From: Brassica napus
Taxonomy: Eukaryota > Streptophyta > Magnoliopsida > Brassicales > Brassicaceae
NCBI RefSeq assembly: GCF_020379485.1
Contig: NC_063452.1
Location: 53,320,439-53,384,438 of the forward strand
DNA: 64,000 nucleotides
Direction of reading: 5' to 3'
In this document: positions 19,701 to 62,932 of the stretch, one piece after another
Layout of the letters: each line of letters opens with the position of its first letter
Position numbering within the stretch: position 1 is the first letter of the stretch
Made by a program: the position numbers and the translations under genes
Notes under the pieces: model-generated
What the model was told of the DNA's origin: nothing
The model's database searches: none
What the model saw: the letters and a program-made list of their open reading frames with translations, nothing else

Positions 19701-21594
19701 GCTCTTCTTCAGACCCTTCAAGATGAATAACATAAAACCAAAATTAGACATAAAATATTTAAAGTCTCAAGGATAATAGAAAGAAAACCTACATTGGTTA
19801 GTGAAGCCATTCTTTCTGGAGGCCTCTGCCTAGACTTTTCTACCAGGGAAGCCCTCTGAAGACTACTAAGCGATTTTGTGTAACGCTGTAGACTCACAAG
19901 TTCACAGTGCTGAAGATATAAAAAAAAACTAACTAGTATTAGCATAAATGAAAATCTCCGAAATACAAAAAAGAAGACAACTACAATGCACTAAAGTTAC
20001 CTCAATGGGGATGTAAGTTGGGCGTTTTGGCTTACCAACATTGATGCAAGGAAAGTTCCCTGAATATCGCAGTGGGATACCGCGAAATTCAGTGAAGTAC
20101 TTGTACACCGTAGTCTGAATTTCCTCAACTTCCCCCTTCTCGTTTTTAGAATTCCGAGTAAACCTATATCAATCAAAGAAAGATACGTTTGAAAAAACTC
20201 AAAGAGATGTAAACATGTAATTAAAAAAAAACATCAAATCATTACATACATTTGATCTTTGCAGCGCTCCTCACTTAGTCCAGTTATCTTGTATTCTCTA
20301 TTGAGGGGCAACCTGTACTCTAAGATTCTTGAGAGCACGTCTAGCCTGATGTGAGACAAAAATCAGATTAGTACTTCTCAAAAATGCATACACATCAGTA
20401 CAAAATAAGATGATCATGATGTACCTTATTCCAGTCAAGATACTTTGGGTCTTTCACATTCTGATTTGCAAGAAGGAAATCAATAACAGGGCCTGGTTGA
20501 ACTACCATCGTAGTTGAAGTGTCTAAAAGAAAATCGAAACCGAATAAAAAATCATAGCCAAAATGTTACAAAGAAGAGTCTAATAATACACATTAGTAAC
20601 AGAAAAAGAGAAATTACCGATATTCAAGGACAAGCCTCCCTGAGTAGTTCTGAAGCTTGAGTGGAAGTTTCTGACACCAGTGACGCCTCCACCGATGTGT
20701 ACAAAGTTCTGGACGTCATTGTGAAAAAATGACTGGCGAACAAGTAGGCATCCCTGCCTAGCTGCACTCTGGCGCAGGATAACATCGAGCACTCTTATAG
20801 CATCTTGAAGATAATCTGTTTCCTTTCCTTGAAGAGCGCTTGCAATAGCTTGCATGGGGATCCTTGCAGCATAGCTTATCTCAACCATGAACTTCTTGGA
20901 TCGATTTGGTCGCCTCGATCTTTTCCTGTCCGCGTCATTTGATTCATTCGGGCTAGCATTTCCAGTGTTATTTCTGTAAATAAAGAGTATCAATTTCATA
21001 ATAAATTTTTGAACAAACAAGGTAAAGATATTTTAAAAAACAAGTCGAAAAACTGAAATGTGGCACCTACCTGCTAGAAGGTGTGTCTTCAAGAACGACA
21101 GAGAAATCCATTTTGTTGCTGGGAAGAGCACCAACGGTGAACAGAGTCTTCTCGCCATCATAGGCAAAGTATTTGGATCCCAGATCGGTTCGATACGTCT
21201 CCTGGACCTTTTCGAGAATCTTCCTGCCAATTCCTTTGGCCTCCACTGGACGACCATCTTCATATGTAATCGCAACCTGCATCCGAAACAAAAAAAACAT
21301 TCACACTAAACAAGTATTTAAAGAAATTTATGCTAAAGGATAAGCAGGATACAAATAGGACACAAGCTGAGGAAACAAAGTACATACGCTGCAATGAAAG
21401 AAATGGCCGTTTGAGTTGTTGAAATTGACTCTGAAGTGATTGGTAAGAAGATGTGTCTTTACTCCTTTGGTCCCGCTGCCTCTCCGGGCCATTGGAAGAA
21501 GAGTGTTCTTTTTGATAGGCTCCAGTTCAGGTACAAGGTTCGATGGAACGACAGGTGGAGGAAGTGGTAGCCCTTTTCCTTTATCAAAACCCAT
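16766..21594 (-). pseudogene. AGO9: Broken AGO9-like Argonaute (copy next to LARP1A)
   Basis: Exon by exon it parallels the intact copy at 47688-52334, from MGFDKGKG (ATG at 21594) to the C-terminal SSMFFC and stop at 16766. It cannot encode a full Argonaute. (1) Coding exon 5 (20250-20345) is 96 nt against 98 in the intact copy; two single-base losses shift frame and give TAG after ALKNLRVQVAPQ, about residue 305. (2) In the KLVEP exon (19253-19366) the Trp of TRWV is TAG at 19334-19336. (3) A 2-bp AT gain near 18842 shifts frame after TQC. (4) The donor after NVPP and the next exon ([14 protein letters not shown] in the intact copy) are gone, replaced by unrelated DNA at 17401-17795. Remaining exons keep MID/PIWI sequence including GMDVSHG, FRDGVSE and CYAHLAA. 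A precise intron present in the intact copy is absent here. A truncated N-terminal protein or non-coding transcript remains possible. Confidence 0.9.
17401..17795 (+). other. Foreign segment replacing an AGO9 exon, with a 42-codon frame
   Basis: AGO9 homology to the intact copy stops at about 17400 (ATAATGGATT) and resumes at about 17796 (TGGAGGAACAT). Between them the plus strand has a frame at 17441-17569 starting [17 protein letters not shown] and ending [15 protein letters not shown], with amphipathic, low-repeat composition like real protein. The frame extends upstream of the ATG, so it looks like the last part of a larger gene followed by 3'-UTR-like AT-rich DNA. I do not recognise the protein. 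Capture by a transposon or during double-strand-break repair are both possible. Confidence 0.6.
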
Positions 21595-22470: not shown

Positions 22471-23330
22471 CAAACTAAGCACTCCCTTTTTTTTATTGCT
22501 CCTATATACATTATTATCGTTCTTTTCGTTTCAGTGTCCTATCATTATTCGTTACATATTTTTGGCCTATATTTAATTATATTGTTAAAGGACAGCTCGG
22601 TTAATGTAATAGATGTATTAATGTATATAATAACGATCAAATATTGCACATTTGCAACGTTACACCTACCACCCTTATAGTTATTTTCTCTCTGTGTGAC
22701 GAATTGGTTTAGCTCCAGTTATTGGATATGAAATCTATGACCTTGGTTCAATTGCAAAGCATGAATATGGTATTAAATGACTGGTATTTAGTGACGGTAT
22801 GAATGATCCTTTTTGAAGAGGTGGTATGAATATTCTTCTCATCTTCCACAATGCATCTGTTGAGAGTCTTCATTGCTCTCATTTATGAAACTACAATTTA
22901 AGCCATGATGCATTTAATAATGACAAAGTCTATAAAAGCATAATTATCCCTGAGACTTTTTCTCATGTCCCCAAGTTTTTTTATTAATATTTGTGAATGG
23001 AGACTTATCTGTGGGACTTTGGTAAATTGTTGGATTATTGATAGGGAAATCGGCCAAAAAAACACTGAACTTTGCGGGAATTGCCAAAAGAAACCTGGAC
23101 ATATGGGCTAGCCAATAAAATCCTGAACTTTTGTTGACTTTTCGGGTTTATTAAGAAACTTACGATTGACTGACCAGATAAACACACCGTTAACCGAGTT
23201 AACTGATAATTAAGCGGACGTTAATTTTGGGTGTTAAAGTATACGACGTCGTTTCATCACTTTGTCTGATTAAAGACAAACGACGTCGTTTATATAGCTG
23301 TGTTATTAAAAATATGTGTTTCCTACGGCT

Positions 23331-23610
23331 CGAACTCGTGTACTCGGGTTTAATGGTAGGGGTTTTTGCCACTGAGCTAGTGGACTTTGCAATGGCTATA
23401 CGAACACAATATCTTTTATTCTTCGAATCCGAGTTAAAGACAAATTAATGAAACGAGGTGTTTTACATTAACATTTTTATTAAAAAGATGGGGTTCCATC
23501 GACTCGAACTCGTGCACTCGGGTATAATGGTAGGGGTTTTTGCCACTGAGCTAGTGGACTTTGCAATGGATATACGAACACAGTTTCTTTTATTCTCTTT
23601 GAATCCGAGT
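23331..23610. repeat. Two-copy duplication with tRNA-like box pairs in the MULE-1 left arm
   Basis: CTCGAACTCGTG..ACTCGGGT, then GGTAGGGGTTTTTGCCACTG and AGCTAGTGGACTTTGCAATG, occurs at about 23330-23400 and again at about 23508-23575. On the minus strand each reads TAGCTCAGTGGC followed about 35 bp later by a GAGTTCGAGT block, resembling pol III A and B boxes. A third copy in opposite orientation lies in the right arm (26618-26690). Confidence 0.7.
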
Positions 23611-23752
23611 TAAATGAATCAAAAAGAGACGACGGTTTTCTCCTCCGATTGGTATAAACCCTAAATGGGCGAAATCATGAATCCAGTTCGCGATTCTCTT
23701 CGATCTCGTCCTTAAGAATCTCGATTCTCATCTCTCCTTCTTCGAGTATCGC

Positions 23753-24305
23753 ATGATGAGTTCGGGTTGTGAGGATTCGTCTGTGAATACGATGGGAATT
23801 CGTGGTATCCCGGAGCAATGCGGTTGTGGTCGAAGAACTGGGATATACACATCAAAAACGAAGGTCAATCCAGGAAGAACTTTCTTTAGATGCCCAACGT
23901 TTCAAAATGTAAGTGTTTAATTTGATTGTGTTTAAGATAAGAACATAAGATTCAATGGCTAGGTAGTAAGTGAGAAATTGTTTGAATATAAAGATTGTGT
24001 TCATGATTTGTGTCTAGGATCACTTGTATAAATGGGTAGATGAAGCTGTCTACGAAGAGGTTCAAGATGCATTGCCAAAAGTTGAATGCTTTGCATCAGA
24101 TTTTATGAAAATTAAAATGGAGATCGAAAGCATGAAAACCGTGGAGGAAGACTTGAAAGAAGATGTCAGGAAGGCGAGCAATGAACTTAAGAAGCTGAAT
24201 GTGATCATGAAAGTGGGTTTTTCGGTGGTTTGTTTAGGCGTTGTGATATGTCTTGTGTTGATCATGTTTGACAAAGCAGATGGGTTGTCTATGAATAGCT
24301 ACTAA
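23753..24305 (+). CDS. Tail-anchored GRF-type zinc-finger protein carried by MULE-1 (147 aa)
   Basis: Exons 23753-23908 and 24018-24305 join in phase (intron GTAAGT..TCTAG) to 147 codons plus stop. The GRF zinc finger at about 20-60 has EQCGCG (C23, C25), the diagnostic NPGRTFFRCP (39-48, C47) and DHLYKWVDE. The usual fourth Cys is His54, so coordination would be CCCH. Residues 60-115 are charged and heptad-like (EIESMKTVEEDLKEDV). Residues about 118-136 (VGFSVVCLGVVICLVLIMF) form one membrane segment with an 11-residue tail, so a C-terminal anchor is likely. GRF domains bind single-stranded nucleic acid in several DNA-repair proteins; this short plant form has no assigned role that I know of. 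It lies inside the TIRs on the strand opposite the transposase remnant. ATG 23756 is an alternative start. Confidence 0.82.
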
Positions 24306-24640
24306 GAGACTGTTTATGTAAGGCTATGTTTATGTAAGAATCATGGTTCATGTAAGGCTATGTTTTAAGACAATGTTTCAGTAATGTTTATGTTTTACTT
24401 CTTGATTGTTTATAGAAGGACAAATGCACCATTGAACAGACCATCAAGATAAACAACATGATGAAAACACAAAGATAATAACCAAGACTATCTTCATTGA
24501 GAGTTTCAAATTAAAACAGCAGGAAAAGAAGAAAGAAAAAGGTAGTTCTTGTTCCAAAAGCATTCAGACAGAGACACCATCATAAACAACAGACAACGAA
24601 AGCATTCAGACAGAGACCATCATAAACAACACACAAGCAT

Positions 24641-26483
24641 CTAAAACAACCATCTTCCCCACGATGCTGTCTGTGATGCTTCAGCTTGTGAGGATTGACC
24701 TTCTGAAGATTGAGGAACTTCCCATGGTGATGCTTGAGCTTGTGAGGATTGATTTTGTGAGGTTTGAGCTTCTGAGGATTGAGCTTGTGACTCGCCAAAG
24801 TGTAGTCCCTGCAACATATAAATGAATTGTTAGACACATTACCGAGAGCTAAAAAACAATGAGATAGAAACTAAGACCCTAACCTGATATTTCCTTGGTC
24901 TGCCTCTTGGTTTCTTAGGTGGGCTCTCAACAAAAGCCTTCCGACATGTATTCTTGTAGTGCCCTTCTTCTTTGCAATTAGAGCATGTCATTACCCTGTT
25001 CGCACGACTCAGCTTGGTAGTAGACACTGTCTCATTGGTTCCCTTCTTTCGATCATGGTTTTTAGGCCTACCAGGCTTGCCATTTCGATTAGGTGGTGGA
25101 ATCACACCTAATCTATTGGTCCGAGGCCACTCTATCATCCCATTTACAGGTCTGATCCCAAAACTGTAGGTTTCACGCCACTTAGAGGTTGTGTAGAAAG
25201 GAGCAACAAATTCAGAGAGTTTTCTTCCCACGCCAAGGATGACCTTAGCAGCATGGATGCATGGAATACCATTCATTTGCCAGCTTCGACATGCACAAGT
25301 CTCATTCTCCAAATTCACCACATATGACTGGTCTCTATCTTCCACTTCAGTCTCTGGCCCAATTGCCCAACGCAGACTACATTCTTTTGACTTCTTCTCA
25401 ACCCTGTCTAACTCTTTATGTGTCTTCGGGGTGAACCTAGTCTTCCTGTCCTTAGCCATCTTAGACCTATTGTAGTTCCTAGTCATACATTGACGCCTTA
25501 TCTCCTCTAACATGTCTAGCAGAGGTTTCTTCCTAGGCTCCCTGATGGTCTTGTTGAAGGACTCACACAAGTTGTTCAGATTATCATTGCAGTAGGAGCC
25601 TATCTTGAAGAAAGCTCTAGACCAAGTCTCATCTCCTCTTGCCTAGCTGAAGGAGCTCCTCTGGATCAGTGTCTTCTCTGTAAGCTTGCGCAGGTCTCAT
25701 CTCCTCTTCATTCTCATCATCTGATGACAGAGGATCAGGGATTTTATCATCATCCCATGCATCATCATCGCCTTCGTCTTCATCAACCTCACAGTCATCA
25801 TTTTTTGCTTTATCACCAAAATAAAGACTCAAATCTGTACAACCAACTTCCTCAATGCCAGCAATACCGTTCTCATCTTCCCTACCATCATCACCTATAT
25901 CCCCAAATTCCTCAATCTGGAGAAATTCTTCTCTGTCATCACCATCATCACCTAGACTCCTCTCCGAGTTTACCTTCTGCTTCTTCGATTGTCTAGGAGA
26001 CACAGGCGACCCGCCAGATGAAGTTCCCCGCCTTGTCTTCTTCGCAACTGTTGATGCCAACATCTCAGTCTCTGGCCATTCTTCTCTGTCATCACCAGAA
26101 GGAGCCACATTTACCTTCTGCTTCTTCGAAACTCTAGGAGACAGAGTTGAACCACGCCTCGTGGCCTTCACCGGAGATGACGCAGGCGACCCATATGAAG
26201 TTCCCCTCCTCGTGGTCTTCTCCGGAGATGACGCAGGCGACCCATATGAAGTTCCCCGCCTAGTCTTCGACGCCTTCGACACCTCTGTAGATGCCAACAT
26301 CGATATCCCTTCAACGCTTTTACGAATCCTCGATCTCTCCAGCGATGGCAAACTCACAGAAGCATCGCGTTCTCCACCCTTCTTCGACTCTTGAACCGCT
26401 TCGTCACTCCCGTAATCGAAATTCCTCATCGCTCCGAAAATCATTACCTCCTTTCCATTCCTTGTGAACTTCGTCTTTACCAT
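24641..26483 (-). pseudogene. MURA-type MULE transposase with catalytic core deleted
   Basis: Read on the minus strand, the N-terminal region (26483 to about 25629) begins MVKTKFTRNGKEV after a likely acceptor. It continues with basic TRRGTSYGSP-type repeats and an acidic stretch ending PEELLQLGK, the usual lead-in to the MuDR domain. Within a few codons the sequence jumps to TWSRAFFKIGSYCNDNLNNL (about 25600), which lies after the DDE catalytic domain. So the MuDR and DDE regions are missing and the junction is out of frame (TGA at once). The downstream part is well kept: CACRSWQMNGIPCIHA SWIM finger, CSNCKEEGHYKNTC zinc knuckle and KKPRGRPRKY AT-hook. It then splices (24884 donor, 24808 acceptor) to a Ser/Gln-rich tail ending GRWLF-stop at 24641. 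It cannot transpose on its own. Confidence 0.88.
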
Positions 26484-26617
26484 CTCTACAAGAGAAATCC
26501 CCAAATCGATTTGAGAAATTAGGGTTACGTTCAAACACGGGTTTCATTTTGTTTGATTGCAATCAAACACATCTTTTGATCAATAAAAATAAACATGTGT
26601 GATAACCTTCCGAAAAG

Positions 26618-26690
26618 TCCACTAGCTCAGTGGCAATACCCCCTTACGACCACGAGTGCACGGGTTCGAGTCCAGGCAGCAACAACAATT
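26618..26690 (+). other. tRNA-like A-box/B-box pair in the MULE-1 right arm
   Basis: TAGCTCAGTGGC (A-box-like) is followed about 35 bp later by GGGTTCGAGTCC (near-perfect B-box). The acceptor and T stems do not pair well, so it is not a functional tRNA. The same module is inverted and duplicated in the left arm. Confidence 0.6.
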
Positions 26691-27069
26691 TTAATTAAGC
26701 AAAACGACGTCGTCTTGAGATTTTGTGTTTAACAAAACAACTGAATGAAACGACGTAGTTTCACTAAACGGCAATAATTAACGGTGAGTTAACACTGTCT
26801 TAACTGTCGGTTAACGGTGTGTTAATTTGGTTAGTCAACCGTAAGTTTGTGAATTAACTAAAAACGTCAACAAAAAATCGGGGTTTTATTGGTCAGGTTC
26901 GAGTACAGGTTTCTTTTGGCAATTCCCGCAAAGTTCAGTGTTTTTTTGGCCGATTTCTCATTATTGATAGGACTTTAAGTTGGTTCTTAAGTTAATTTTT
27001 TAATATAAATAAATAAAATTATAAAATATAAGATAAAACATATTAACTTGTTTAAATAGGATAAAATTA

Positions 27070-28031
27070 GGGAAAATTTGGATAAATGCACTTCAATAAG
27101 AATATAATTTGAAAAATACACCTTTGTTTAAGCTTTTTGAAAAATACACTTATCTATATATAAATTTACCAAATTACCCAATCTTAATAGTTATCATCAA
27201 TTCCTATTAAACAATTTTAAAAAAAATTATTTTAAAAGAAAATCGTTAGAGATAGGGAATTATATGTGAATCCACTGTTCAGAATTTCTTCCAACTCTTT
27301 CATATACACATGAAAGTAATCTTTCGATAAGACTTCAATGCAAGCAACACCATATGTTTTCTGTGACTTTAAACTGTTGGTATGTGTTTGTTCTTCCTCT
27401 GCCTTTCTTTTTCCATTACTTCTTTTTTGAATCTTGTACTCCATCTCTATATAAACAACCTAAATTAAAAAATTTGTAAGATACACGAATCAAATCATTG
27501 GCTCAAACAGATTTATTGGATTTTCATGACACGTGAAAAAAGAAGAACAAACCGATGAATAATAATCAGTGCAATTCTTTTTCATATTCAAAAAAAAAAA
27601 AAACACATATCCGAATACATCATATTAGCTAGAACTTACTTGGCTCCCGTGGAGAAGATGAAAATTTTGTAGAGACAAACGTGACTTGCTTTTCTTTTTT
27701 AACAACGTAACTTGTTTATGTAAGTTGAAGAAAATAAAATAAAGGAAAATCTGTATAAACATCATGATAAAGTCAAAAAAAGTCATAATTCACATGTTTA
27801 TCTTTGTTATTATAAAATTTAAATGGTAAAATAACATATTTATCTCAACACACATATTTATCTAATTTTAATGATATTATTTTATTAATTTCGAATTTAT
27901 ATACTAATTTCGAATTATATCTTGGGTAAAAAGGTCAATTCATAATTAAGGAAGTGTATTTTTCACAAGTTAAAATAGAAAATGCAATTATCAAATTTCA
28001 AATCCTAAATAGGGTATTTTGTAAATTACCC
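27070..28031. mobile_element. Small MULE-type non-autonomous element (MULE-2, 962 bp)
   Basis: A perfect 9-bp direct repeat ATAAAATTA flanks the element at 27061-27069 and 28032-28040, the size expected for Mutator-like elements. Ends are GGGAAAATTTGGATAAATGC (left) and GGGTAATTTACAAAATACCC (right, reverse-complemented): short and weakly inverted. The interior is AT-rich with one unrecognised 70-codon minus-strand frame (27232-27444, Lys/Glu-rich). It interrupts the Harbinger downstream of its transposase. Confidence 0.78.
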
Positions 28032-28254
28032 ATAAAATTATTCATTTATAAGAAAAACATATTATTATTTCAGACAAAAAATACAGACTTAAATAAAAAC
28101 AAACACAAATTTTATTCATTTTAAAGAAATTAAAATATTACATATTATTATTTCGGAGATGTCCAAACTTATCTCATATATGTTCAACCAAATCCCTTTT
28201 TAATTGTTGATGGGTATGTGAATCTCGAACTTCTTTCCGACGGTCAAGTACATT

Positions 28255-29406
28255 TCAGGCCTTTTTAGGCCTTCTTACGGTGAATGAAAACTCTTCATCT
28301 TGAAATTCCTCAATGGTGTTTGCATCGCGTTCATCTTCGACTATCATATTATGGAGGATGATACATGCCTTCATAATATTTCCCATTTTTGCTTTATCCC
28401 ATATTTTTGATGGATTTTTGACAACGGCAAATCTTCCTTGGAGGACTCCAAAGGCACGTTCAACATCTTTTCGAACTCTTTCTTGGGTATTAGCAAACAA
28501 TGACTGTTTTTCGGTTTGTTGTAGTTTTATAGACTGAATAAAAGTCGCCCATTTCGGATATATACCATCTGTTAGGTAATATGCCAGATGGTACTCCGTT
28601 TGGTTGACATAATAGTTTACTGCTGGGGTGATCCCGTTAATAATGTCATCAAAAACAGGAGAACGATCAAGAATATTAAGATCGTTCATAGTACCTGGAG
28701 CTCCAAAAAAAGCGTGCCAAATCCAGAGGTCTTTTGAAGCAACTGCCTCCAACACAATCGTTGGTTTTCCCGTTCCCCGTGAATACATTCCTTTCCAAGC
28801 GGTGGGACAATTCTTCCACTCCCAATGCATACAGTCGATGCTTCCAATCATCCCCGGGAATCCACGTTCTTCGTTGATATATAGTTGTCTTTGCAGATCC
28901 TCCGGTGTGGGATGTCGTAGGTATTCATCGCCAAACAAGGTGATAATACCGGCGGTAAAATTGTGCAAACTAGCTCGGGCCGTTGTTTCAGCAAGACGGA
29001 TATATTCGTCTTGGGCATCGGCCGCACCACCGTATGCCAATAGGCGAATAGCTGCAGTACATTTTTGCAGGGGAGAAAGACTGTCCCGTCCGGTTGCATC
29101 TTCTGATTGTTGAAAATACGGTATTTCTGTGGAGAGACGATGCACAATACGAACGAACAAAGATTTGTTCATTCGAAACCGGCGCCGGAATAAACGGGTA
29201 GAGTAGGTCGGAGTCTCGCTAAAATAATCATTCCAGAGCCTTCTGTGCCCTTCTTCCCGATCTCTCTCTATAAAAATTCTTTTTTTTCTCTCTTTTGGTT
29301 CTGGAATAGGATCATTAAATCCTAAAAACTCATCACTTATCGACGCAAATTCATCATCACCACTATCATTGTTGTATTGATAATGATAATGTGAAGATGA
29401 TGCCAT
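28255..29406 (-). CDS. PIF/Harbinger DDE transposase (383 aa)
   Basis: One uninterrupted exon. I chose ATG 29406 (MASSSHYHYQ) because the 13 codons before it are Phe-rich leader-like sequence. The DDE_Tnp_4 / plant Harbinger nuclease features appear in order: GSIDCMHWEWKN (first Asp), YYLTDGIYPKW (second Asp) and RKDVERAFGVLQGRFAV (Glu). Harbinger landmarks such as CTAAIRLLAYG, RHPTPEDLQRQL, FGAPGTMNDLN and KACIILHNMIVED are also present, and all three catalytic acids are kept. It would excise and integrate the element at TAA/TTA sites, working with the Myb-like ORF1 protein encoded nearby. The same C-terminal sequence recurs as a relic at 34601-34702. Confidence 0.93.
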   Translation of the reverse strand: MASSSHYHYQYNNDSGDDEFASISDEFLGFNDPIPEPKERKKRIFIERDREEGHRRLWNDYFSETPTYSTRLFRRRFRMNKSLFVRIVHRLSTEIPYFQQSEDATGRDSLSPLQKCTAAIRLLAYGGAADAQDEYIRLAETTARASLHNFTAGIITLFGDEYLRHPTPEDLQRQLYINEERGFPGMIGSIDCMHWEWKNCPTAWKGMYSRGTGKPTIVLEAVASKDLWIWHAFFGAPGTMNDLNILDRSPVFDDIINGITPAVNYYVNQTEYHLAYYLTDGIYPKWATFIQSIKLQQTEKQSLFANTQERVRKDVERAFGVLQGRFAVVKNPSKIWDKAKMGNIMKACIILHNMIVEDERDANTIEEFQDEEFSFTVRRPKKA

Positions 29407-29639
29407 TAGAATTTTAAAGAAAAATAAGAAGAATTTGTGATACAACGAGAGGAGAAGTGAATGAATAGGAAATTGTGGTATAAAAAATTTGATGCATTAT
29501 GGCTTATATTTATAGAGGAGCAGACGTGATTCAAACTCTCGTGTGATAATGTCAAAGTGAATGAATGTTTTTAGGATTTATTAGTCACGAGAAGTGTATC
29601 TTGTGATTCTAGACTGTTGTTTCCAAAAACTAATGGTAG

Positions 29640-29733
29640 CCTCTTGTGACTAAAGGCTGTCGTGACTAGTAGCATCTCGTGATACTAGCCTCTTGTGACT
29701 AAAGGCTGTCGTGAGTAGTAGCATCTTATGTAG
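29640..29733. repeat. Tandem direct repeat between transposase and GRF gene
   Basis: CTCTTGTGACTAAAGGCTGT followed by CGTGA(C/G)TAGTAGCATCT occurs twice, about 54 bp apart, in the transposase upstream region. It may be regulatory or a replication slip. Confidence 0.75.
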
Positions 29734-29789
29734 GAGTTATTACAAAAGTCATTACATCCGAAGAGTGAAGCTATTACAAAGCTCTCGAA

Positions 29790-30371
29790 TCACTTAAAGC
29801 AGATTACCACACCTAAGAAAACTAATACAATGATCAGTAGCCCAACAAGCAGTTCAAAACCATTGAAGTAACTTGATCTCTTATTTCCTAACTCACAGAC
29901 AAGGTTCTCAAGCCTAACCAATTTCTGCTCAGTCTCAAAGTCACTAAACAAGGTTAGATTGTCTACCTTTTCACTGAGTTGAAGAACGTGTCTATCCCTT
30001 GCCCTCATCTCCTCCATCACGGCGACGTCCCACCACTTCCATACATGGCATTCTCCATCGTCAGCTTGGTCACAAGTGTAGTAAAGTCTTCCCCCATTGT
30101 TAAGAGTCTTCGCCATTGCTAGTTTTGGTACGCCACCACAGTAGCATATCTGCGGGAAGCTGAACTCAACTTCTGGTTGAGGTGGGTATTGAGGCGGCTC
30201 ACTACGGTTGAGCTCTTCTTGTTCCCTACGGTTGAGTTCTTCTTGCTCCCGACGGCTGAGCTCTTCTTGGTCCTGACGGATGAGCTCTTCTGTAGAGCTG
30301 TAGCCACACTCTGAAGAATCCTCATAATAATCCTCTGACATAGATGGCTGGGTGTAACTATAGCGTCCCAT
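29790..30371 (-). CDS. Tail-anchored GRF-type zinc-finger protein carried by Harbinger (193 aa)
   Basis: ATG 30371 (MGRYSYTQPS) is chosen because a splice acceptor (TATTTCAG) lies just upstream, so the longer frame to 30395 would read through an intron end. An acidic N-terminus leads into a near-perfect charged repeat (REQEELNR, residues 31-57) and a Pro-rich linker. A complete GRF zinc finger at about 75-115 follows: CYCGG (C76, C78), NNGGRLYYTC (C100), DDGECHVWKWWD (C108). A predicted coiled coil (about 120-165) is followed by a final 20-residue hydrophobic helix ending VVICFK, which suggests tail anchoring. It sits between the ORF1 and transposase genes, same strand. Harbingers need only those two genes, so this third gene is cargo or an accessory factor. 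Its architecture parallels the GRF gene of MULE-1 (23753-24305) but the sequence is much diverged. Confidence 0.85.
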   Translation of the reverse strand: MGRYSYTQPSMSEDYYEDSSECGYSSTEELIRQDQEELSRREQEELNRREQEELNRSEPPQYPPQPEVEFSFPQICYCGGVPKLAMAKTLNNGGRLYYTCDQADDGECHVWKWWDVAVMEEMRARDRHVLQLSEKVDNLTLFSDFETEQKLVRLENLVCELGNKRSSYFNGFELLVGLLIIVLVFLGVVICFK

Positions 30372-30607
30372 TATAAAGTTTCCTGAAATAGACACAAGAA
30401 AATAAAAATGTTAACAGCGAACAAAGAGAAGAAAAATTAAATGTTAACAGCGTACAATAACTAAAAACAATGCATAACTTAAAACAGCAAACAACTTTCA
30501 TTCATAGTTAACAGCATACAACGTACACACATAGAGCTTACATAAACATTTAAACTTATTTCTAACAGAGAAACATGGAAAAGGTTGAAACAAAGAAACA
30601 TGGAGAC

Positions 30608-31513
30608 TTAGATCAAAGCCAGCAGCTTATTCTTAGTTGCTTCTTCAGGCTCAGTAAGAGGATCTTTCTTGGCTAGAAGTGTGTCAAGAATCGCAAGCTT
30701 TGTTAGTCTCTCCTTGATCAAGAGATCCTCCTTCCTCATCAAGAGATCCTCCTTCTTCATCTCCCAAACGGTCTGACACTCCGACAGAGACCTCAATGGT
30801 GCGGAATTCTTCTTTTTAGCCTTCGCCGCCTTGATTCCTTCAGGACGGACCTCAGGATCACCAACGGAGCTGCTTGAAGCTTGAGAACATGTCTCTTTTC
30901 GCTTTGAATTCCCAGCAGGCTTAGGAGTGTTAAGGCTGAGCCATTTCTGCTCATAACTCAACACACACCAAGCATGGTCAAGAGTGAATTTTTTCCCGTG
31001 ATCCGCAAAGTAGATGTCTTTGGACAGCTTGAGCAGATCATTGTCATTCTGACCAGAACTCTTCTGTCTCTCAGCTGCAGCGTATGCAGCACAGAATTTG
31101 TTCGTGTAGTCATTGATCTTGTGCCACCTCTGCTTACAGTTGAGATGCTCACGATTATCACCACTAGCTTTAGCATGAGGACTTGACGCATAGAACTCAC
31201 CAACTCGTTTCCAGAATGTCCCCTTATTTTGATCAACGCCAACAACAGCATCATTAGATGTGTTTAGCCATCCACTTATTAACATCTCGTCATCGGCTGG
31301 AGTCCAGCTCCTTCGCTCCCTAGAGGCAACAGGTGGGTTTTCGGGTGCAACTGGAGGATTTGGTGGCTGTTCACTAGAAGCAGGGATGTCTGATGCTCCA
31401 AAGTGATGAGGAGAACCATAACTTTTATAAGGAAAGGTCTGGCTGTTAAGAAAGCCGACGAAACTAGAACAAGGAGACTGACTATAAGGATTCAATGGAT
31501 CCCTTGAATCCAT
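30608..31513 (-). CDS. Harbinger ORF1, Myb/SANT-like DNA-binding protein (301 aa)
   Basis: Single intact frame. Residues 1-65 are Ser/Pro-rich. The trihelix Myb-like domain at about 68-150 has RRSWTPADDEMLISGW, KGTFWKRVGEFY and LNCKQRWHKINDYTNKFCAAY. A DHAWCVLSYEQKWL motif is followed by a basic linker (KAAKAKKKN) and a C-terminal charged helix (MKKEDLLMRKEDLLIKERL). In plant PIF/Harbinger elements this ORF1 product binds subterminal DNA and partners the transposase. The gene is nearest the right terminus, in the same direction as the GRF and transposase genes. Similar proteins are often annotated in Brassicaceae as glutathione S-transferase T3-like or NAM-associated; no GST or NAC domain is present here. 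Confidence 0.9.
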   Translation of the reverse strand: MDSRDPLNPYSQSPCSSFVGFLNSQTFPYKSYGSPHHFGASDIPASSEQPPNPPVAPENPPVASRERRSWTPADDEMLISGWLNTSNDAVVGVDQNKGTFWKRVGEFYASSPHAKASGDNREHLNCKQRWHKINDYTNKFCAAYAAAERQKSSGQNDNDLLKLSKDIYFADHGKKFTLDHAWCVLSYEQKWLSLNTPKPAGNSKRKETCSQASSSSVGDPEVRPEGIKAAKAKKKNSAPLRSLSECQTVWEMKKEDLLMRKEDLLIKERLTKLAILDTLLAKKDPLTEPEEATKNKLLALI

Positions 31514-31929
31514 TACGATTAGAACAGATAGAAGAGAGGAAGAGAGGATGAGAGAAAGAGATGTGTGTAAAACAAAGGTGAGAAGTTGTGTGTTGAAATA
31601 GGTGAGAAAGAGTTGTGAGAAGTTTGGAATAATAAGTTACCTTCTTAATGTCCTAACCATAAACTACCGGGGTCTAATCAAACTTATTACAGTCACAACA
31701 ACAAAAGAGAACAAAGCAGAAACAACGAAACTATAAAGAAGTGATTCCTAACTCGTTCCCATTAACTCATCAAACAACAACAAAGGTTTATGTGACCAAA
31801 CTAATAACATCTCTTCACGCAAACGAGCTTATTATAGTTGAACCAAACTTAAATGTCCACACAGACAGTACGCAACTATGAAAACTTAAACTTAAAAGCT
31901 ACTTACCTAAACAATAAAGAAGACAATCG

Positions 31930-32055
31930 TAATCAAGTCTATGTAAACTACTTCAATGTCAACAGGGGCAATTGTAAACTACTTCAAGTCTATGTAAACT
32001 ACTTCAATGTCAACAGAGACAGTAGCAATCAATGTCAACAAGAAGGCAATACGCT
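31930..32055. repeat. Short tandem repeats upstream of Harbinger ORF1
   Basis: CTATGTAAACTACTTCAATG followed by TCAACAG occurs twice (about 31939 and 31991), with extra partial copies of CTACTTCAAGTC and CAATGTCAACA. It is in the Harbinger subterminal region. Confidence 0.7.
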
Positions 32056-32344
32056 ATCTTAAATGTCACAAACTACTTCAAGTCACAAAGAAGACAGTAG
32101 TAATTCTCTCTATGTAAACTACCACTCTATCACCTTCTTACGTCAGAAATATACAAGTAATTATAACAACATATCAAGTCTTTCTTACTACTAATCAACT
32201 ATACGAAACCCATATCAAGTGATTATCAAGTAGTCAATTCAATGAGAACTAGTAATCAAAATTCAGTTCGTAACCCATTGGTTCTGTTCTTAATTCCCTA
32301 ACCAAAAACAATAACCCTAATCAAGAGATTTGGACAAACCTGGA

Positions 32345-32505
32345 TTCGTTTCGAGGAGAGATCGGTGTGGAGTGATCGGGAGAAATCGGTGTGGAGTGAT
32401 CGAGGAGAGATCGGTGTGGAGTGATCGGGAGAAATCGGTGTGGAGTGATTGAGGAGAGATCGGTGTGGAGAGATCGGTGTGGAGTGATCGGTGAAGATGA
32501 GAAAT
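32345..32505. repeat. Minisatellite near the Harbinger right end
   Basis: About seven units of ATCGGTGTGGAGTGAT alternating with CGAGGAGAG or CGGGAGAA. Period is about 20-21 bp, often arranged as 42-bp higher-order pairs. Confidence 0.85.
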
Positions 32506-32983
32506 GGTGCCGGAACTCTTGTTTCCCCTATAAACAAACATGCAGAAACGAATCAAACACAAATACTCAGATGAATTTCCGATAATATGAACACAAACCC
32601 ATATCAATTATATCGTATATTAAACTCGAAAATCACGAAATTAAGGTACGGGAAGGAACATGAACCTTCTGGGTGTTCGATTCGACGGATTTCGTACTCG
32701 ATTATACGAGAAAACGGTGTGGATTGCGACGATCTATTTCGCCACCGATATCGCCTATGGAGAGAGAGAGAAGAAGGAGACGAAGTGAAATGAATTCAGA
32801 CAAAACTCGACTCTCTCTCTCCCCTTCGGTTTGCCTCTCCCTTGCTGCCACGTAGCCCAAGGACTTCGTTAAAAACTTCTAATTCTGAAAACGTTTCCGC
32901 TATTTTTTGGTATTTTTCATTTTCTTTTTGGCTTATATTGGTTGGGGACTTTTGCTAAGATGTCCCGATAATTATGCTCTAAG

Positions 32984-33237: not shown

Positions 33238-33444
33238 GACCATGATTAACCCGGAGTTCTTAGAGTGGAGTTCTTAGCGTAAGTTAAGAAATTGTTTCTT
33301 AACTTTTAACTAAAAAAGCTAAGAACATGTTCTTAAATTCTTTATTTAAGAACCAGTTCTTAGTTTTTTTAGTTAAAAGTTAAGAAACAATTTCTTAACT
33401 TTCGCTAAGAACTCCATCCTAAGAACTTCGGGTTAATCATGCTC
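33238..33444. mobile_element. Harbinger-type foldback MITE B
   Basis: Near-perfect inverted halves. Left GACCATGATTAACCCGGAGT matches right (reverse-complemented) GAGCATGATTAACCCGAAGT, and the complementarity runs about 100 bp per arm with TTAAGAAATTGTTTCTTAAC inside. TAA flanks it (33235-33237, 33445-33447). 207 bp, no coding capacity; a transcript would form a long hairpin. Confidence 0.88.
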
Positions 33445-34702: not shown

Positions 34703-35115
34703 AAGTCTACAAAACACGGCAATATAATCGGTCGTCGCAAAGAAGTTTGCAATCCACAAATCCATCACCAATTAAAAGAAGATTTGGTTGAACATATATG
34801 AGAAAAATTTGGACATTTTCAAAATTAAGTTTTTAAAAATTCAATAAAATGTATGTTTTTTTTCGGATTTTGTAATATTTTTTTTGTTTTGCAAGTTTGT
34901 ACTGTTTAAGGTTTTTATAATTCAATATACTGTTTAATATTTATTTAAAACTAATTAATTATTAAATAAAAATATTACTAAGAAACAACTTTAAGTCCTA
35001 CCAAGTACCAATAAACTCCTCTTTTACCTATGTTTCTTGCCTTTGTATCTTAAGGGAACAATATTAATAAAAAAGCCTTAGGACTTCATAATAAAGACTA
35101 GCAATGGGGTTGCTC

Positions 35116-39684: not shown

Positions 39685-40692
39685 TCAGTCTTTTAGACAA
39701 TCTGAAGTTTCATAATCCATAAGATCGTCCTTCTCATGATTGAAGTCATTTTCATCATCTTGGTAAGTTATATGGGCTTCAGAATTCTTCCCTTTCAGAC
39801 TCTCTTGATAGAGGTCAACAAGATGCTTGGGAGTCCTACAAGTCTTAGCCCAATGATTGCTCATACCACACCTATGGCACACGGATTCGTCTGGTTTGGT
39901 CGAGTGTTGGGGTTTAAATGAAGATCCATGGCCGCGACCATGACCTCGTCCAAATGAGCCATGGTCTCGACCATTTCCTCGCCCGCGGCCAAAAGATCTT
40001 CGACCGCGTCCATGTCCGTTCGACTTGTCTCGACTACGGCCATACTGGCCGTTTCCTTGGACGTGGTTGAACTCTTTATTTTCCTCTGTCTTGTGTGCTT
40101 CAGGTAGTGGAGCTGATCCAAGAGGTCTCATCTGACTGTTTCTCATCAATAATTCATTGTTCTGCTCAGCGAGCAAGAGACAAGAAATAAGATTATCATA
40201 GGTCTTAAAACCTTTCTCACTGTACTGTTGTTGTAACAGCACATTACTTGCATGGAAAGTGGAAAAGATTTTCTCAAGCATATTATGTTCCGTAATACTT
40301 TCACCACATAGTTTCATTTTAGAAACAATATTAAACAGTGCAGAGTTATACTCGTCCACAGACTTATAGTCTTGGATTCTGAGATTCGTCCAATCAAACC
40401 GAGCTTTTGGTAAGATCACCATTCTCTGGTGATCATATCTCGATTTCAATTCGTTCCAAAGATCTAGTGGATTCTCAATGGTTAGATACTGATCCTTGAG
40501 ACTCTCAGCTAGATGATGACGAATGATCAAGATGGCTATGTAACGATCTTTCTCATTATCATTATTGTTCTCGGTGATACATTCACTGAGACCCTTGGAT
40601 TTCAGGATGATCTTAGCATCGAGCGCCCATTGAAGGTAATTATCTCCAGAGAGATTTAGGGAAGCGAAATCCAGGTTGTTGATTTTCGACAT
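39685..40692 (-). CDS. Copia Gag (335 aa)
   Basis: Intact frame from ATG 40692 (MSKINNLDFASLNL). The N-terminal two-thirds is the UBN2-type gag core, with NYLQWALDAKIILKSKG, LWNELKSRYDHQ and IQDYKSVDEYN. A Gly/Arg-rich RNA-binding stretch at about 218-262 precedes a CCHC zinc knuckle CHRCGMSNHWAKTC and an acidic tail. It would form the virus-like particle shell and bind element RNA. Its openness contrasts with the decayed pol immediately downstream. Gag-like frames can persist by chance in older copies, so expression is not implied. Confidence 0.88.
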   Translation of the reverse strand: MSKINNLDFASLNLSGDNYLQWALDAKIILKSKGLSECITENNNDNEKDRYIAILIIRHHLAESLKDQYLTIENPLDLWNELKSRYDHQRMVILPKARFDWTNLRIQDYKSVDEYNSALFNIVSKMKLCGESITEHNMLEKIFSTFHASNVLLQQQYSEKGFKTYDNLISCLLLAEQNNELLMRNSQMRPLGSAPLPEAHKTEENKEFNHVQGNGQYGRSRDKSNGHGRGRRSFGRGRGNGRDHGSFGRGHGRGHGSSFKPQHSTKPDESVCHRCGMSNHWAKTCRTPKHLVDLYQESLKGKNSEAHITYQDDENDFNHEKDDLMDYETSDCLKD

Positions 40693-61237: not shown

Positions 61238-62932
61238 TCACTGAATCCAAGGCATGGACAAGTCTTGATCTTGATTCTGATGATAGTTCTCCATCCCAAC
61301 TGTTTGCGCATAGCCATTGTTGGTATTCTGATGATAGTTCTCCATCCCAACTGTTTGCGCATAGCCATTGTTGGTATTCTTATGATAGTTCTCCATCCCT
61401 ACTGTTTGCGCATAGCCATTGTTGGTATTCTTATGATAGTTCTCCATCCCTACTGTTTGCGCATAGCCATTGTTGGTATTATGATTCATCACCGAAGTAT
61501 TACCTCCTCTTTCTGCTGCTTTTGGTCTGTAGAGATTGTTGGATTGAGTAAAATTGTCTGGAATGCTCTGAACTTGCTGCTGCTGCTGCTGCTGCTGCAT
61601 TCCCACTTGGCTCTCCGGTCTGTTTCCATAAAAACTCCGGTTATAATCCGGATAAGGCATACCAAAGGGTTCAGCGGGTTGGTAAAAGGGTTCAGTGGGT
61701 TGTTTATAAGGACAAGTCATTTGGTGATTCTCTCTTAAGACCCTGTCATTGAATCCCATCTCTGGTCTGCTATAAGGACAGGGACTGTTCTCACAAGTTA
61801 GGTTCGTTCCTGGATGAAGTGACTCTCCTTCAAACCTCCTCTTGTTGTTATAAACACTATTGAAGTTGTTGTTGTCAAATCCATGAAACTGCCGATTGAG
61901 ACGATGACGAGGCCCAACACTTCCTTCAACATCATAATCTGCTGGTTCAGGGAATAGAGTATCCGTCTCGCCACCAGTTCCATCTTCTTCTGAGAAGGTT
62001 AAAGGCTGCTCCTGACTCTGACTAGCAATAGCCTTCTCTCTGTTCAAAGCAGCTAGCCATAAAGAGCCTTCTCTTGAAGTCATCTTCTCCTGCAGAGTCG
62101 TAGACCGTCCCACCAGCTTCGCTATGTCGTTAATGTCTGAAGCCATCATATGTCTGATCACACCAATCAAAATACCAACCTTCCACATCTTCTTGAGGCC
62201 ATGAGGCTTCCTGTAAGCAGGAGGATGTCCTCTACAACCATCGGGTAAAGGCAGATCACCCCACCAGTCTTCTTTCCCCGTCGGCCACCAAGGCGGCGGC
62301 ACGCCTTTCTCCAAGGGATAACGTCTCTGAGGAGGCTTGCAGTTAGGCATCAGAGCAGATAAAAGAGCTCCTAGAGTTGTATCTTGCAGCTCAAGCAACT
62401 TATGTGCAGTACATTCTCCTCCATCCTCAGAGTATCCTAACTCATTTCCATCAGTGGCGGAGAGATTGATCTCTCTCTGGTGCTTCAGTATAGCAGCTGG
62501 TCCGTTCCTATCAAACCTCACTTGGTCTCTCCACCATCCACGGAGATTGTCAGAAGACCCCGTTACTGTTTTCCCGTTCTGGAAAACGACGCCGTACACG
62601 AAGCCTTGAGCTTTGCAACGCTCCATTGTCTTGGACATGTACTTTAAGATCCCATCCTGTGCCTGGTACATCATTCTCTTTCTCGAATGTTCATCGTCAG
62701 GAGGCTGCTTCAACGATGCTCTACCTAGCCCGTTCTTGGACATCTCCTTGAGCTGCTTCAAACGCTGCTTGTCTTTCCAGATCTTCTTCTCAAGCTCCTC
62801 TATCTCCATTTCTTCTTCGGTCGGGTCGTTGCACGTAGTGTTAAGCGATGCGAAACACGTCTCTCCTTCGGGGAAACGAGGCACAGGGCTTGTTACTAAA
62901 GTGGGGAACATCCCTATATTGGTGTTATACAT
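61238..62932 (-). CDS. EIL2: EIN3-like transcription factor EIL2 (564 aa)
   Basis: A single coding exon from ATG 62932 ([12 protein letters not shown]) to stop 61238. Residues about 38-300 form the EIN3 DNA-binding domain: [71 protein letters not shown] and [22 protein letters not shown]3/EIL factors bind ethylene-response promoters and are controlled by EBF1/2-dependent degradation. The C-terminus is low complexity: a Gln run near 450-458, then four 17-residue repeats ([18 protein letters not shown]) before the last 12 residues. Arabidopsis EIL2 is somewhat shorter (about 518 aa from memory), and the repeats may account for part of that. Upstream, an acceptor near 62960 and donor at about 63305 indicate a 5'-UTR intron of about 345 bp. 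Confidence 0.92.
61277..61480. repeat. 51-bp coding minisatellite, four units, in EIL2
   Basis: Units are nearly identical at DNA level (CCATCCC(A/T)ACTGTTTGCGC, ATAGCCATTGTTGGTATT). Each encodes 17 residues, so copy-number change would keep frame. Confidence 0.93.

What the first reader, a model, noticed from the sequence alone, without database searches (positions are those of the whole stretch)
23753..30371. Two different transposon superfamilies in one nest each carry a tail-anchored GRF zinc-finger gene
MULE-1 (23753-24305) and the Harbinger around it (29790-30371) each encode an intact small protein with the same plan: GRF finger, charged/coiled-coil linker, single C-terminal membrane helix. 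Sequence outside the finger differs strongly, so this is not a recent copy. Known MULEs and Harbingers do not need this gene. Independent capture suggests it helps the element, perhaps by binding ssDNA or RNA intermediates, acting at the nuclear envelope or ER, or countering silencing. The function is speculation; the shared architecture is directly visible.
Basis: partly seen in the sequence, partly recalled or inferred. Interest (0 to 1): 0.9.

Follow-up and report, generated by a model that had tools for sequence, protein, structure and literature searches.

The report
Membrane-anchored zinc-finger gene in two transposons
Two unrelated kinds of plant jumping gene, one sitting inside the other, each carry a small gene for a probably membrane-anchored, probably nucleic-acid-binding protein, and relatives in other cabbage-family plants suggest that it is a lasting part of both elements rather than accidental baggage.

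Summary
A Harbinger (22936-32979, TSD TAA) contains a MULE (23044-26959, TSD ATTATTGATA). Each encodes an open GRF-finger, coil, C-terminal-TM protein (Harbinger: 29790-30371, minus; MULE: 23753-23908 plus 24018-24305, plus, one intron).

Neither gene is private to this nest. The Harbinger gene had 260 protein hits; the best 120 were listed, and every named source among them is Brassica, Raphanus, Sinapis or Eruca. In 15 of these 120 the gene model is fused to ORF1 of the same Harbinger lineage. GRF and ORF1 segments co-diverge (12 fused models plus the window: r 0.71, 0 of 5000 permutations). Of 44 MULE-type proteins, 8 carry other sequence of this MULE. The TM stretch is the least conserved in sequence (46%) yet hydrophobic in all 36 aligned members.

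Both look like resident accessory genes of their element lineages. The shared plan is best read as homology within one Brassicaceae GRF-coil-TM family (At1g43920/At4g04775-like), not convergent design. Two acquisitions or a transfer remain open. Benefit to the element is inferred: dN/dS, expression, localisation and binding were not tested. New variant of a known kind.

The parts
22936..32979 (-). PIF/Harbinger element (TSD TAA at 22933-22935 and 32980-32982; terminal 13 bp, 12 identical); its three genes read on the minus strand
   Evidence: only end pair meeting the criterion in the stretch scanned
30608..31513 (-). Harbinger ORF1, Myb/SANT-like protein with NAM-associated C-terminal region (301 aa)
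   Evidence: Myb_DNA-bind_6 E 1.9e-4, 22.0 bits against a cut-off of 22.9; NAM-associated E 0.0022, below its cut-off
29790..30371 (-). Harbinger GRF gene: variable charged N-terminus, GRF finger (residues 75-115), helical linker, C-terminal hydrophobic helix (174-192); 193 aa, one ORF; possible 3' splice site (TTTCAG) 11 bases upstream of the ATG
28255..29406 (-). Harbinger DDE transposase (383 aa; Plant_tran domain matched over its whole length; homologous tail continues past the stop)
   Evidence: Plant_tran E 7.9e-106, DDE_Tnp_4 E 7.9e-14
23044..26959 (.). TIR-type Mutator-like element inside the Harbinger (TSD ATTATTGATA at 23034-23043 and 26960-26969; TIRs 23046-23420 and 26582-26957)
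23753..23908 (+). MULE GRF gene, exon 1 (start codons at 23753 and 23756; first three Cys of the finger)
24018..24305 (+). MULE GRF gene, exon 2 (end of the finger, helical linker, hydrophobic helix, short tail)
24839..26483 (-). remnant of the MULE transposase gene (N-terminal ORF 25629-26483 without Pfam match; SWIM ORF 24839-25513 with weak CCHC), convergent to the GRF gene; catalytic domain not found
   Evidence: SWIM E 1.1e-8; the 115 bp between the two ORFs were not scanned

Best explanation
The GRF-coil-TM gene is a resident accessory gene, not passenger DNA, in two unrelated transposon lineages of cabbage relatives: the third gene of a PIF/Harbinger lineage (between Myb-like ORF1 and DDE transposase) and the second, convergent gene of a TIR-MULE lineage. 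Both belong to one Brassicaceae GRF-coil-TM family and were probably acquired separately. Shown: presence, order, recurrence beside the same element sequences in other species' gene models, co-divergence with ORF1, retained finger and hydrophobic C-end. Inferred mechanism: the protein is inserted by its C-terminal helix into ER or nuclear-envelope membrane, dimerises through the coil, and holds the GRF finger in the cytosol or nucleoplasm, where it binds single-stranded nucleic acid of the element (its RNA, or exposed ends during transposition). The likeliest benefit is protecting element RNA from silencing or favouring its translation, or tethering transposition intermediates; I cannot rank these with confidence.
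For: Harbinger: 260 homologues, the best 120 listed and examined; 15 of 120 gene models include ORF1 of the same lineage, 14 in the window's order (ORF1 then GRF) and P0028 reversed, from B. cretica, B. carinata, B. rapa and Raphanus; one more (P0115) runs into sequence matching the transposase tail. GRF and ORF1 segments of 12 fused models plus the window co-diverge (three of the 15, P0086, P0097 and P0112, lack the ORF1 C-terminal piece and were left out): r 0.71, 0 of 5000 permutations; r 0.66-0.67, 0 of 5000 each, in three reduced sets. Mean pairwise distance 0.37 (GRF) and 0.30 (ORF1). By region in 36 sequences: finger 76% identity; TM stretch 46% identity but mean hydropathy 1.30-3.22 in every member. 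Hydrophobic helix within 30 residues of the C end in 98 of the 115 Harbinger-type proteins (window included) that have the finger and at least 60 residues after it. MULE: 8 of 44 proteins contain other sequence of this MULE: antisense transposase gene in P0126, P0128, P0133, P0136, P0158, P0164; 5' flank with TIR-like repeat in P0152, P0159; also P0227 from the third search. The best 14 MULE-type proteins are 77-95% identical over 83-100% of the query, from Brassica, Raphanus and Hirschfeldia. AlphaFold: hairpin, then one helix from 112 to 192. The GRF finger of APE2 binds ssDNA (PMC6122073, passages).
Against: Fused gene models are automatic annotations; they show adjacency, not expression, and one of the 15 has the reverse order. 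104 of 120 and 36 of 44 listed proteins show no other element sequence by this test, and their surroundings could not be read. Three Harbinger-type models (P0103, P0106, P0109) start with a stretch that is not from this Harbinger. No plant DNA beyond the window was available, so dN/dS, TIR enrichment and copy intactness were not measured; protein databases favour intact ORFs. 17 of 115 Harbinger-type, 2 of 18 MULE-type and 16 of 41 wider-family proteins fall under my hydropathy cut-off, and 2 of 18 MULE-type have the helix further than 30 residues from the end. Many MULE-type models are truncated or oddly joined. The fold search gave no significant match; matches to real GRF structures by profile are weak (NEIL3 E 0.08, ZCCHC4 E 0.93). 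The MULE-type model is poor (pLDDT 59).
Confidence: 0.6

Rival explanations
1. Passive cargo: transduplicated host GRF-coil-TM genes that spread with the elements and decay neutrally, as in Pack-type elements.
For: Capture of host sequence by MULEs and other elements is well known (PMC13317346, passages). The MULE itself is defective, and many truncated or oddly joined MULE-type models exist (P0135, P0144, P0147, P0151, P0157).
Against: The gene sits beside ORF1 in 15 diverged models and co-diverges with it. The finger and the hydrophobic C-end are kept while coil and TM stretch have fallen to 60% and 46% mean pairwise identity. The best 14 MULE-type proteins stay 77-95% identical over most of their length in three genera.
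Confidence: 0.2
2. One acquisition, then transfer between elements: a single transposon lineage took up the gene, and nesting or recombination moved it to the other superfamily.
For: The nest shows that the two elements meet physically. Three Harbinger-type GRF models of the HVHKWW subgroup (P0103, P0106, P0109) begin with a basic, proline-rich stretch that I recall as like the C-terminal linker of MuDR-type transposases (no family model tested it; its best match in the window, 35% over 17 residues, E 0.30, lies in the MULE transposase remnant).
Against: In the tree the two types are separated by long, well-supported branches, and the MULE type groups with At1g43920-like proteins (100/97), not with the Harbinger type; the midpoint root and the program's long-branch warning make this tentative.
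Confidence: 0.2
3. Not element genes at all: ordinary host genes of a multicopy family that happen to lie next to, or were enclosed by, insertions.
For: At4g04775 is annotated in A. thaliana as a zinc ion binding protein (P0195). GRF-coil-TM genes are multicopy, so some would lie near elements by chance.
Against: Both genes lie inside TIR/TSD boundaries, and the same element neighbours recur in several species.
Confidence: 0.05

Closest known systems
PIF/Harbinger two-gene elements (Myb-like protein plus DDE transposase)
   Same: TSD TAA, Myb/SANT-like ORF1, Plant_tran/DDE_Tnp_4 transposase; the two-ORF plan is as described in PMC9179366 (passages)
   Different: A third gene, GRF-coil-TM, between ORF1 and transposase; a MULE has inserted about 100 bp from its left end
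Kaonashi (KIU) / VANC genes of Arabidopsis non-TIR MULEs
   Same: A captured domain kept as an extra gene of a transposon; VANC is reported to cause hypomethylation of related elements (PMC13317346, passages)
   Different: Ulp1 or VANC, not GRF; non-TIR MULEs, not a TIR-MULE; no membrane anchor named in the passages seen
MuDR mudrA/mudrB of maize (recalled, no call)
   Same: Second gene convergent to the transposase gene between long TIRs
   Different: MURB is not known to me as a GRF or membrane protein; homology not tested
At4g04775 and At1g43920-like GRF proteins of Brassicaceae
   Same: GRF finger with a conserved His before the K-W motif, helical linker, C-terminal hydrophobic helix in many
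   Different: Not shown here to lie in transposons; At4g04775-like proteins form a separate branch
GRF fingers of APE2, NEIL3, ZCCHC4
   Same: GRF-type finger; ssDNA binding by that of APE2 (PMC6122073, passages)
   Different: Those lie in enzymes without this coil-TM tail (recalled); sequence similarity to solved NEIL3 and ZCCHC4 chains is weak

Membership tests
PIF/Harbinger superfamily | 3-bp TSD (TAA/TTA) and matching TIRs | tested here: met
   TAA both sides, 12 of 13 terminal bases
PIF/Harbinger superfamily | DDE transposase of the Plant_tran/DDE_Tnp_4 kind | tested here: met
   E 7.9e-106 and 7.9e-14, both above cut-off
PIF/Harbinger superfamily | Myb/SANT-like second protein | tested here: inconclusive
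   Myb_DNA-bind_6 E 1.9e-4, 22.0 bits, under the curated cut-off of 22.9; NAM-associated E 0.0022, under cut-off; position fits
Mutator-like element (TIR-MULE) | long TIRs and a TSD of about 8-11 bp (recalled range) | tested here: met
   about 375-bp TIRs, 299 identities; 10-bp perfect TSD
Mutator-like element (TIR-MULE) | MURA-type transposase with catalytic (MULE) domain and SWIM/CCHC | tested here: inconclusive
   SWIM E 1.1e-8, weak CCHC; catalytic domain not found in the two ORFs scanned; this copy is defective
GRF zinc finger (PF06839) | match to the GRF finger model | tested here: met
   MULE protein 31.5 bits, above the 25.9 cut-off; Harbinger protein 25.7, just under; relatives P0100, P0101, P0107, P0109 above
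tail-anchored membrane protein | single hydrophobic helix within about 30 residues of the C end | tested here: met
   both window proteins; 98 of 115 Harbinger-type and 14 of 18 MULE-type proteins with finger and at least 60 residues after it, by hydropathy only
tail-anchored membrane protein | membrane insertion with N-terminus in cytosol or nucleoplasm | not testable with these tools
   needs localisation and protease protection
transposon anti-silencing factor (VANC-like) | loss of DNA methylation at cognate elements on expression | not testable with these tools
   none

The most novel reading that the evidence does not exclude
Two unrelated DNA-transposon superfamilies in one plant tribe have each made a membrane-tethered, dimeric single-strand-binding protein a fixed part of their gene set, working as a factor for escape from silencing or for tethering transposition intermediates at the ER or nuclear envelope. 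That would be a membrane-linked step in cut-and-paste transposition that the models known to me do not include, with the gene perhaps also passed between superfamilies (HVHKWW subgroup).
Probability: 0.3. Interest if true: 0.85.

Novelty: new variant of a known kind. Interest (0 to 1): 0.6.

Why it matters
Brassica protein sets hold many uncharacterised 'At4g04775-like' and 'At1g43920-like' proteins; the subset studied here can be reassigned to transposons. A conserved, membrane-anchored, probably nucleic-acid-binding protein in cut-and-paste elements would make a new question testable: does a membrane take part in transposition, or in the escape of transposon RNA from silencing?

Tried and rejected
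Searched for element-level DNA of relatives: the search for related loci in viral contigs and genome contigs (2 of 2 scans) gave pattern matches but no relative by tblastn; plasmids by tblastn gave none. So no dN/dS and no test of enrichment within TIRs.

The genome search for the window's own assembly did not complete.

Structural route: the model of the Harbinger protein (mean pLDDT 70, pTM 0.26) gave no significant PDB match. The MULE-type model (P0121 first) is too poor to use (mean pLDDT 59) and was not searched.

tRNA-like look of the MULE TIR repeats: ARAGORN found none in the window, and Rfam at E up to 1 none in the two stretches given; dropped. A bacterial-type promoter and terminator scan was at chance level and is not informative for a plant.

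Considered and rejected: that the two genes are recent copies of each other (23-28% identity); that the Harbinger gene is unique to this nest.

The N-terminal stretch of P0103, P0106 and P0109 was suspected to be a MuDR-type transposase end; support is recall and a 35% match, E 0.30, so it is kept only as a lead.

Literature: 10 searches. Some lists were capped (30 of 409 papers shown; 8 of 14). By title and start of abstract none of the listed papers describes a GRF gene in Harbinger or MULE elements. Papers opened, passages only: PMC13317346 (no occurrence of 'GRF' or 'Harbinger'), PMC9179366, PMC6122073. Most subscription papers and preprints are not covered, so absence from print is not established.

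Corrections made on checking: Myb test set to inconclusive (below curated cut-off); full-length claim for MULE-type proteins narrowed to 83-100% of the query; only P0101 of the second-finger models has that finger complete.
Full report
What is there. The window contains a nest. A PIF/Harbinger element runs from 22936 to 32979, with TAA on both sides and 12 of 13 matching terminal bases; it was the only end pair meeting that criterion in the stretch scanned. Its genes read on the minus strand: Myb-like ORF1 (30608-31513), GRF gene (29790-30371) and DDE transposase (28255-29406, Plant_tran E 7.9e-106). The Myb match of ORF1 is just under its curated cut-off. About 100 bp inside the left end sits a TIR-type MULE, 23044-26959, with a perfect 10-bp duplication (ATTATTGATA) and terminal repeats of about 375 bp (299 identities, 50 mismatches, 53 gap positions). 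The MULE carries the second GRF gene on the plus strand and, convergent to it, the remnant of a transposase gene (SWIM and a weak CCHC remain; the catalytic domain was not found in the two ORFs scanned). No third GRF locus in the window was hit by any of the 164 GRF-family proteins then in hand, apart from short TIR-, flank-, transposase- and tail-derived matches.

The two proteins. The Harbinger protein is a single 193-aa ORF. The MULE protein needs one intron (23909-24017) that falls inside the finger; database proteins are joined at the same residue. Both have a GRF finger (25.7 bits against a cut-off of 25.9, and 31.5 bits), a helical linker and one strongly hydrophobic C-terminal stretch, 1 and 11 residues from the end. 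The AlphaFold model of the Harbinger protein shows a beta hairpin followed by one helix from residue 112 to 192 (mean pLDDT 70, pTM 0.26). A profile of the family matches coiled-coil structures over the linker (a myosin-7/GCN4 fusion E 8.8e-4, GCN4 E 0.0046), which fits a coiled-coil dimer but does not prove it. Profile comparison aligns the two families over 64 columns, finger and just beyond (E 6e-13, 36% identity). Four Harbinger-type relatives (P0110, P0111, P0116, P0118) also match the MULE protein through coil and TM at 23-24% identity, so whole-length homology is likely though weakly shown.

Recurrence of the Harbinger gene. The Harbinger protein had 260 homologues with E up to 0.001; the 120 that the tool listed were examined. 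The named sources among them are Brassica, Raphanus, Sinapis or Eruca. In 15 of these 120 the predicted protein is a fusion with pieces of this Harbinger's own ORF1: 14 in the window's order and one (P0028) reversed. One more (P0115) ends in sequence matching the transposase tail region. Of 34 models with an extension of 30 or more residues or a fusion, 19 do not match ORF1 or the transposase ORF by blastp; P0115 is one of the 19. Four of the others belong to a subgroup with the word HVHKWW and lose the TM: P0101 runs into a complete second GRF-like finger and coil, P0100 and P0107 into the later part of the same stretch, P0109 into a short piece of it.

Co-inheritance. In 12 fused models with an ORF1 C-terminal piece plus the window (three of the 15 lack that piece and were dropped), pairwise distances of the GRF part and of the ORF1 part correlate (r 0.71; 0 of 5000 permutations as high). 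Dropping near copies or the window leaves r 0.66-0.67, 0 of 5000 each. Mean pairwise distances are 0.37 (GRF) and 0.30 (ORF1). The GRF gene therefore travelled with ORF1 through the diversification of this Harbinger lineage and changes at a similar pace. Across 36 aligned Harbinger-type proteins the finger is 76% identical, the coil 60% and the TM stretch 46%, but the TM stretch is hydrophobic in every member (mean hydropathy 1.30 to 3.22): its character, not its letters, is kept. These 36 were chosen as full-length members, so they do not show how often the TM is lost; in the wider count 98 of 115 keep it.

Recurrence of the MULE gene. The MULE protein had 44 homologues. 8 of 44 include other sequence of this MULE: antisense transposase gene in three Raphanus models and one each of B. 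cretica, B. campestris and B. napus; 5' flank with the TIR-like repeat in B. oleracea and B. napus. P0227, a weak hit (E 0.16) of the third search, joins GRF exon 1 to the far end of the MULE. Many others are truncated or oddly joined. The remaining 36 of 44, and 104 of 120 on the Harbinger side, show no other element sequence by this test; their surroundings could not be read.

Wider family. A profile of the MULE type found 109 proteins with E up to 1 (only the 7987 candidates sharing most words were scored), among them Cardamine, Capsella, Camelina, Eutrema and Arabidopsis proteins, several named At1g43920-like or At4g04775. Of the 65 proteins new in that search, 43 show the finger pattern, 41 of these have 60 or more residues after it, and 25 of 41 pass a strict hydropathy cut-off near the C end. 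In a 51-row tree the Harbinger type lies on one side of a 100/99 branch, the MULE type groups with At1g43920-like proteins (100/97; these nest among the MULE rows at the midpoint root), and the At4g04775 type is separate. The program warns of long branches. The common plan is thus best read as inherited from one family. Two acquisitions fit the tree best, but transfer is open.

How it may work (inference). A C-terminal anchor with a short tail places the finger in the cytosol or, if the protein reaches the inner nuclear membrane, in the nucleoplasm (general knowledge of tail-anchored proteins). The GRF finger of APE2 binds ssDNA (PMC6122073, passages). The element makes RNA that must leave the nucleus and be translated, and it exposes DNA ends when it moves, so either RNA protection and translation or tethering of intermediates is possible. 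Accessory proteins that cause hypomethylation are known in MULEs (VANC; PMC13317346, passages). In the usual Harbinger plan only a Myb-like protein and a transposase are described (PMC9179366, passages). No result here separates these mechanisms.

Limits. No plant genomic DNA beyond the window could be read, so selection was judged from proteins only. Protein databases favour intact ORFs, and fused gene models are annotations that prove only adjacency. No expression or localisation data were available. The ten paper searches cover open-licence PMC texts only.

Verdict. New variant of a known kind; interest 0.6.

Noticed in passing
window 33279-33403: Rfam MIR9563 match on both strands (110 and 103 bits). 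It is an inverted repeat just beyond the Harbinger, and the bases around it (TAAGACCATGATTAACCC ... GGGTTAATCATGCTCTAA, read) resemble the Harbinger ends, so this 'microRNA' family may be a Harbinger-type MITE.
   Followed up: no
window 20580-20999 and 61238-62932: Argonaute fragment (ArgoN, ArgoL1) and an EIN3-type gene (EIN3_DNA-bd E 1.6e-104) lie on either side of the nest; from memory AGO9 and an EIN3-like gene are near each other in Arabidopsis, so the nest may sit beside a silencing gene.
   Followed up: partly
P0100, P0101, P0107, P0109 and P0103, P0106: HVHKWW-subgroup models: four lose the TM and run into all (P0101) or part (the others) of a second GRF-like finger plus coil; three (P0103, P0106, P0109) start with a basic proline-rich stretch that recalls a MuDR-type transposase C-terminus.
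   Followed up: partly
window 23326-23421, 23488-23580, 26615-26680: The MULE ends carry a segment with words like the tRNA A box and B box (TAGCTCAGTGG, GGTTCGAGTCC), doubled on the left; no tRNA by ARAGORN or Rfam.
   Followed up: partly
window 28156-28320 and 34718-34825: Transposase-tail homology continues past the Harbinger transposase stop, and a second Harbinger transposase tail remnant lies at 34.7 kb.
   Followed up: partly
P0162 (B. cretica): MULE-type GRF exon 2 fused in a gene model to a replication protein A domain (PF02721), perhaps a Helitron-type neighbour.
   Followed up: no
window 27053-28048: Another possible inverted-repeat insertion (arms about 130 bp, 91 identities, 33 mismatches) between MULE and transposase, inside the Harbinger.
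   Followed up: no
window 39685-40692: Copia-type gag ORF (Retrotran_gag_2 E 7.9e-9).
   Followed up: no
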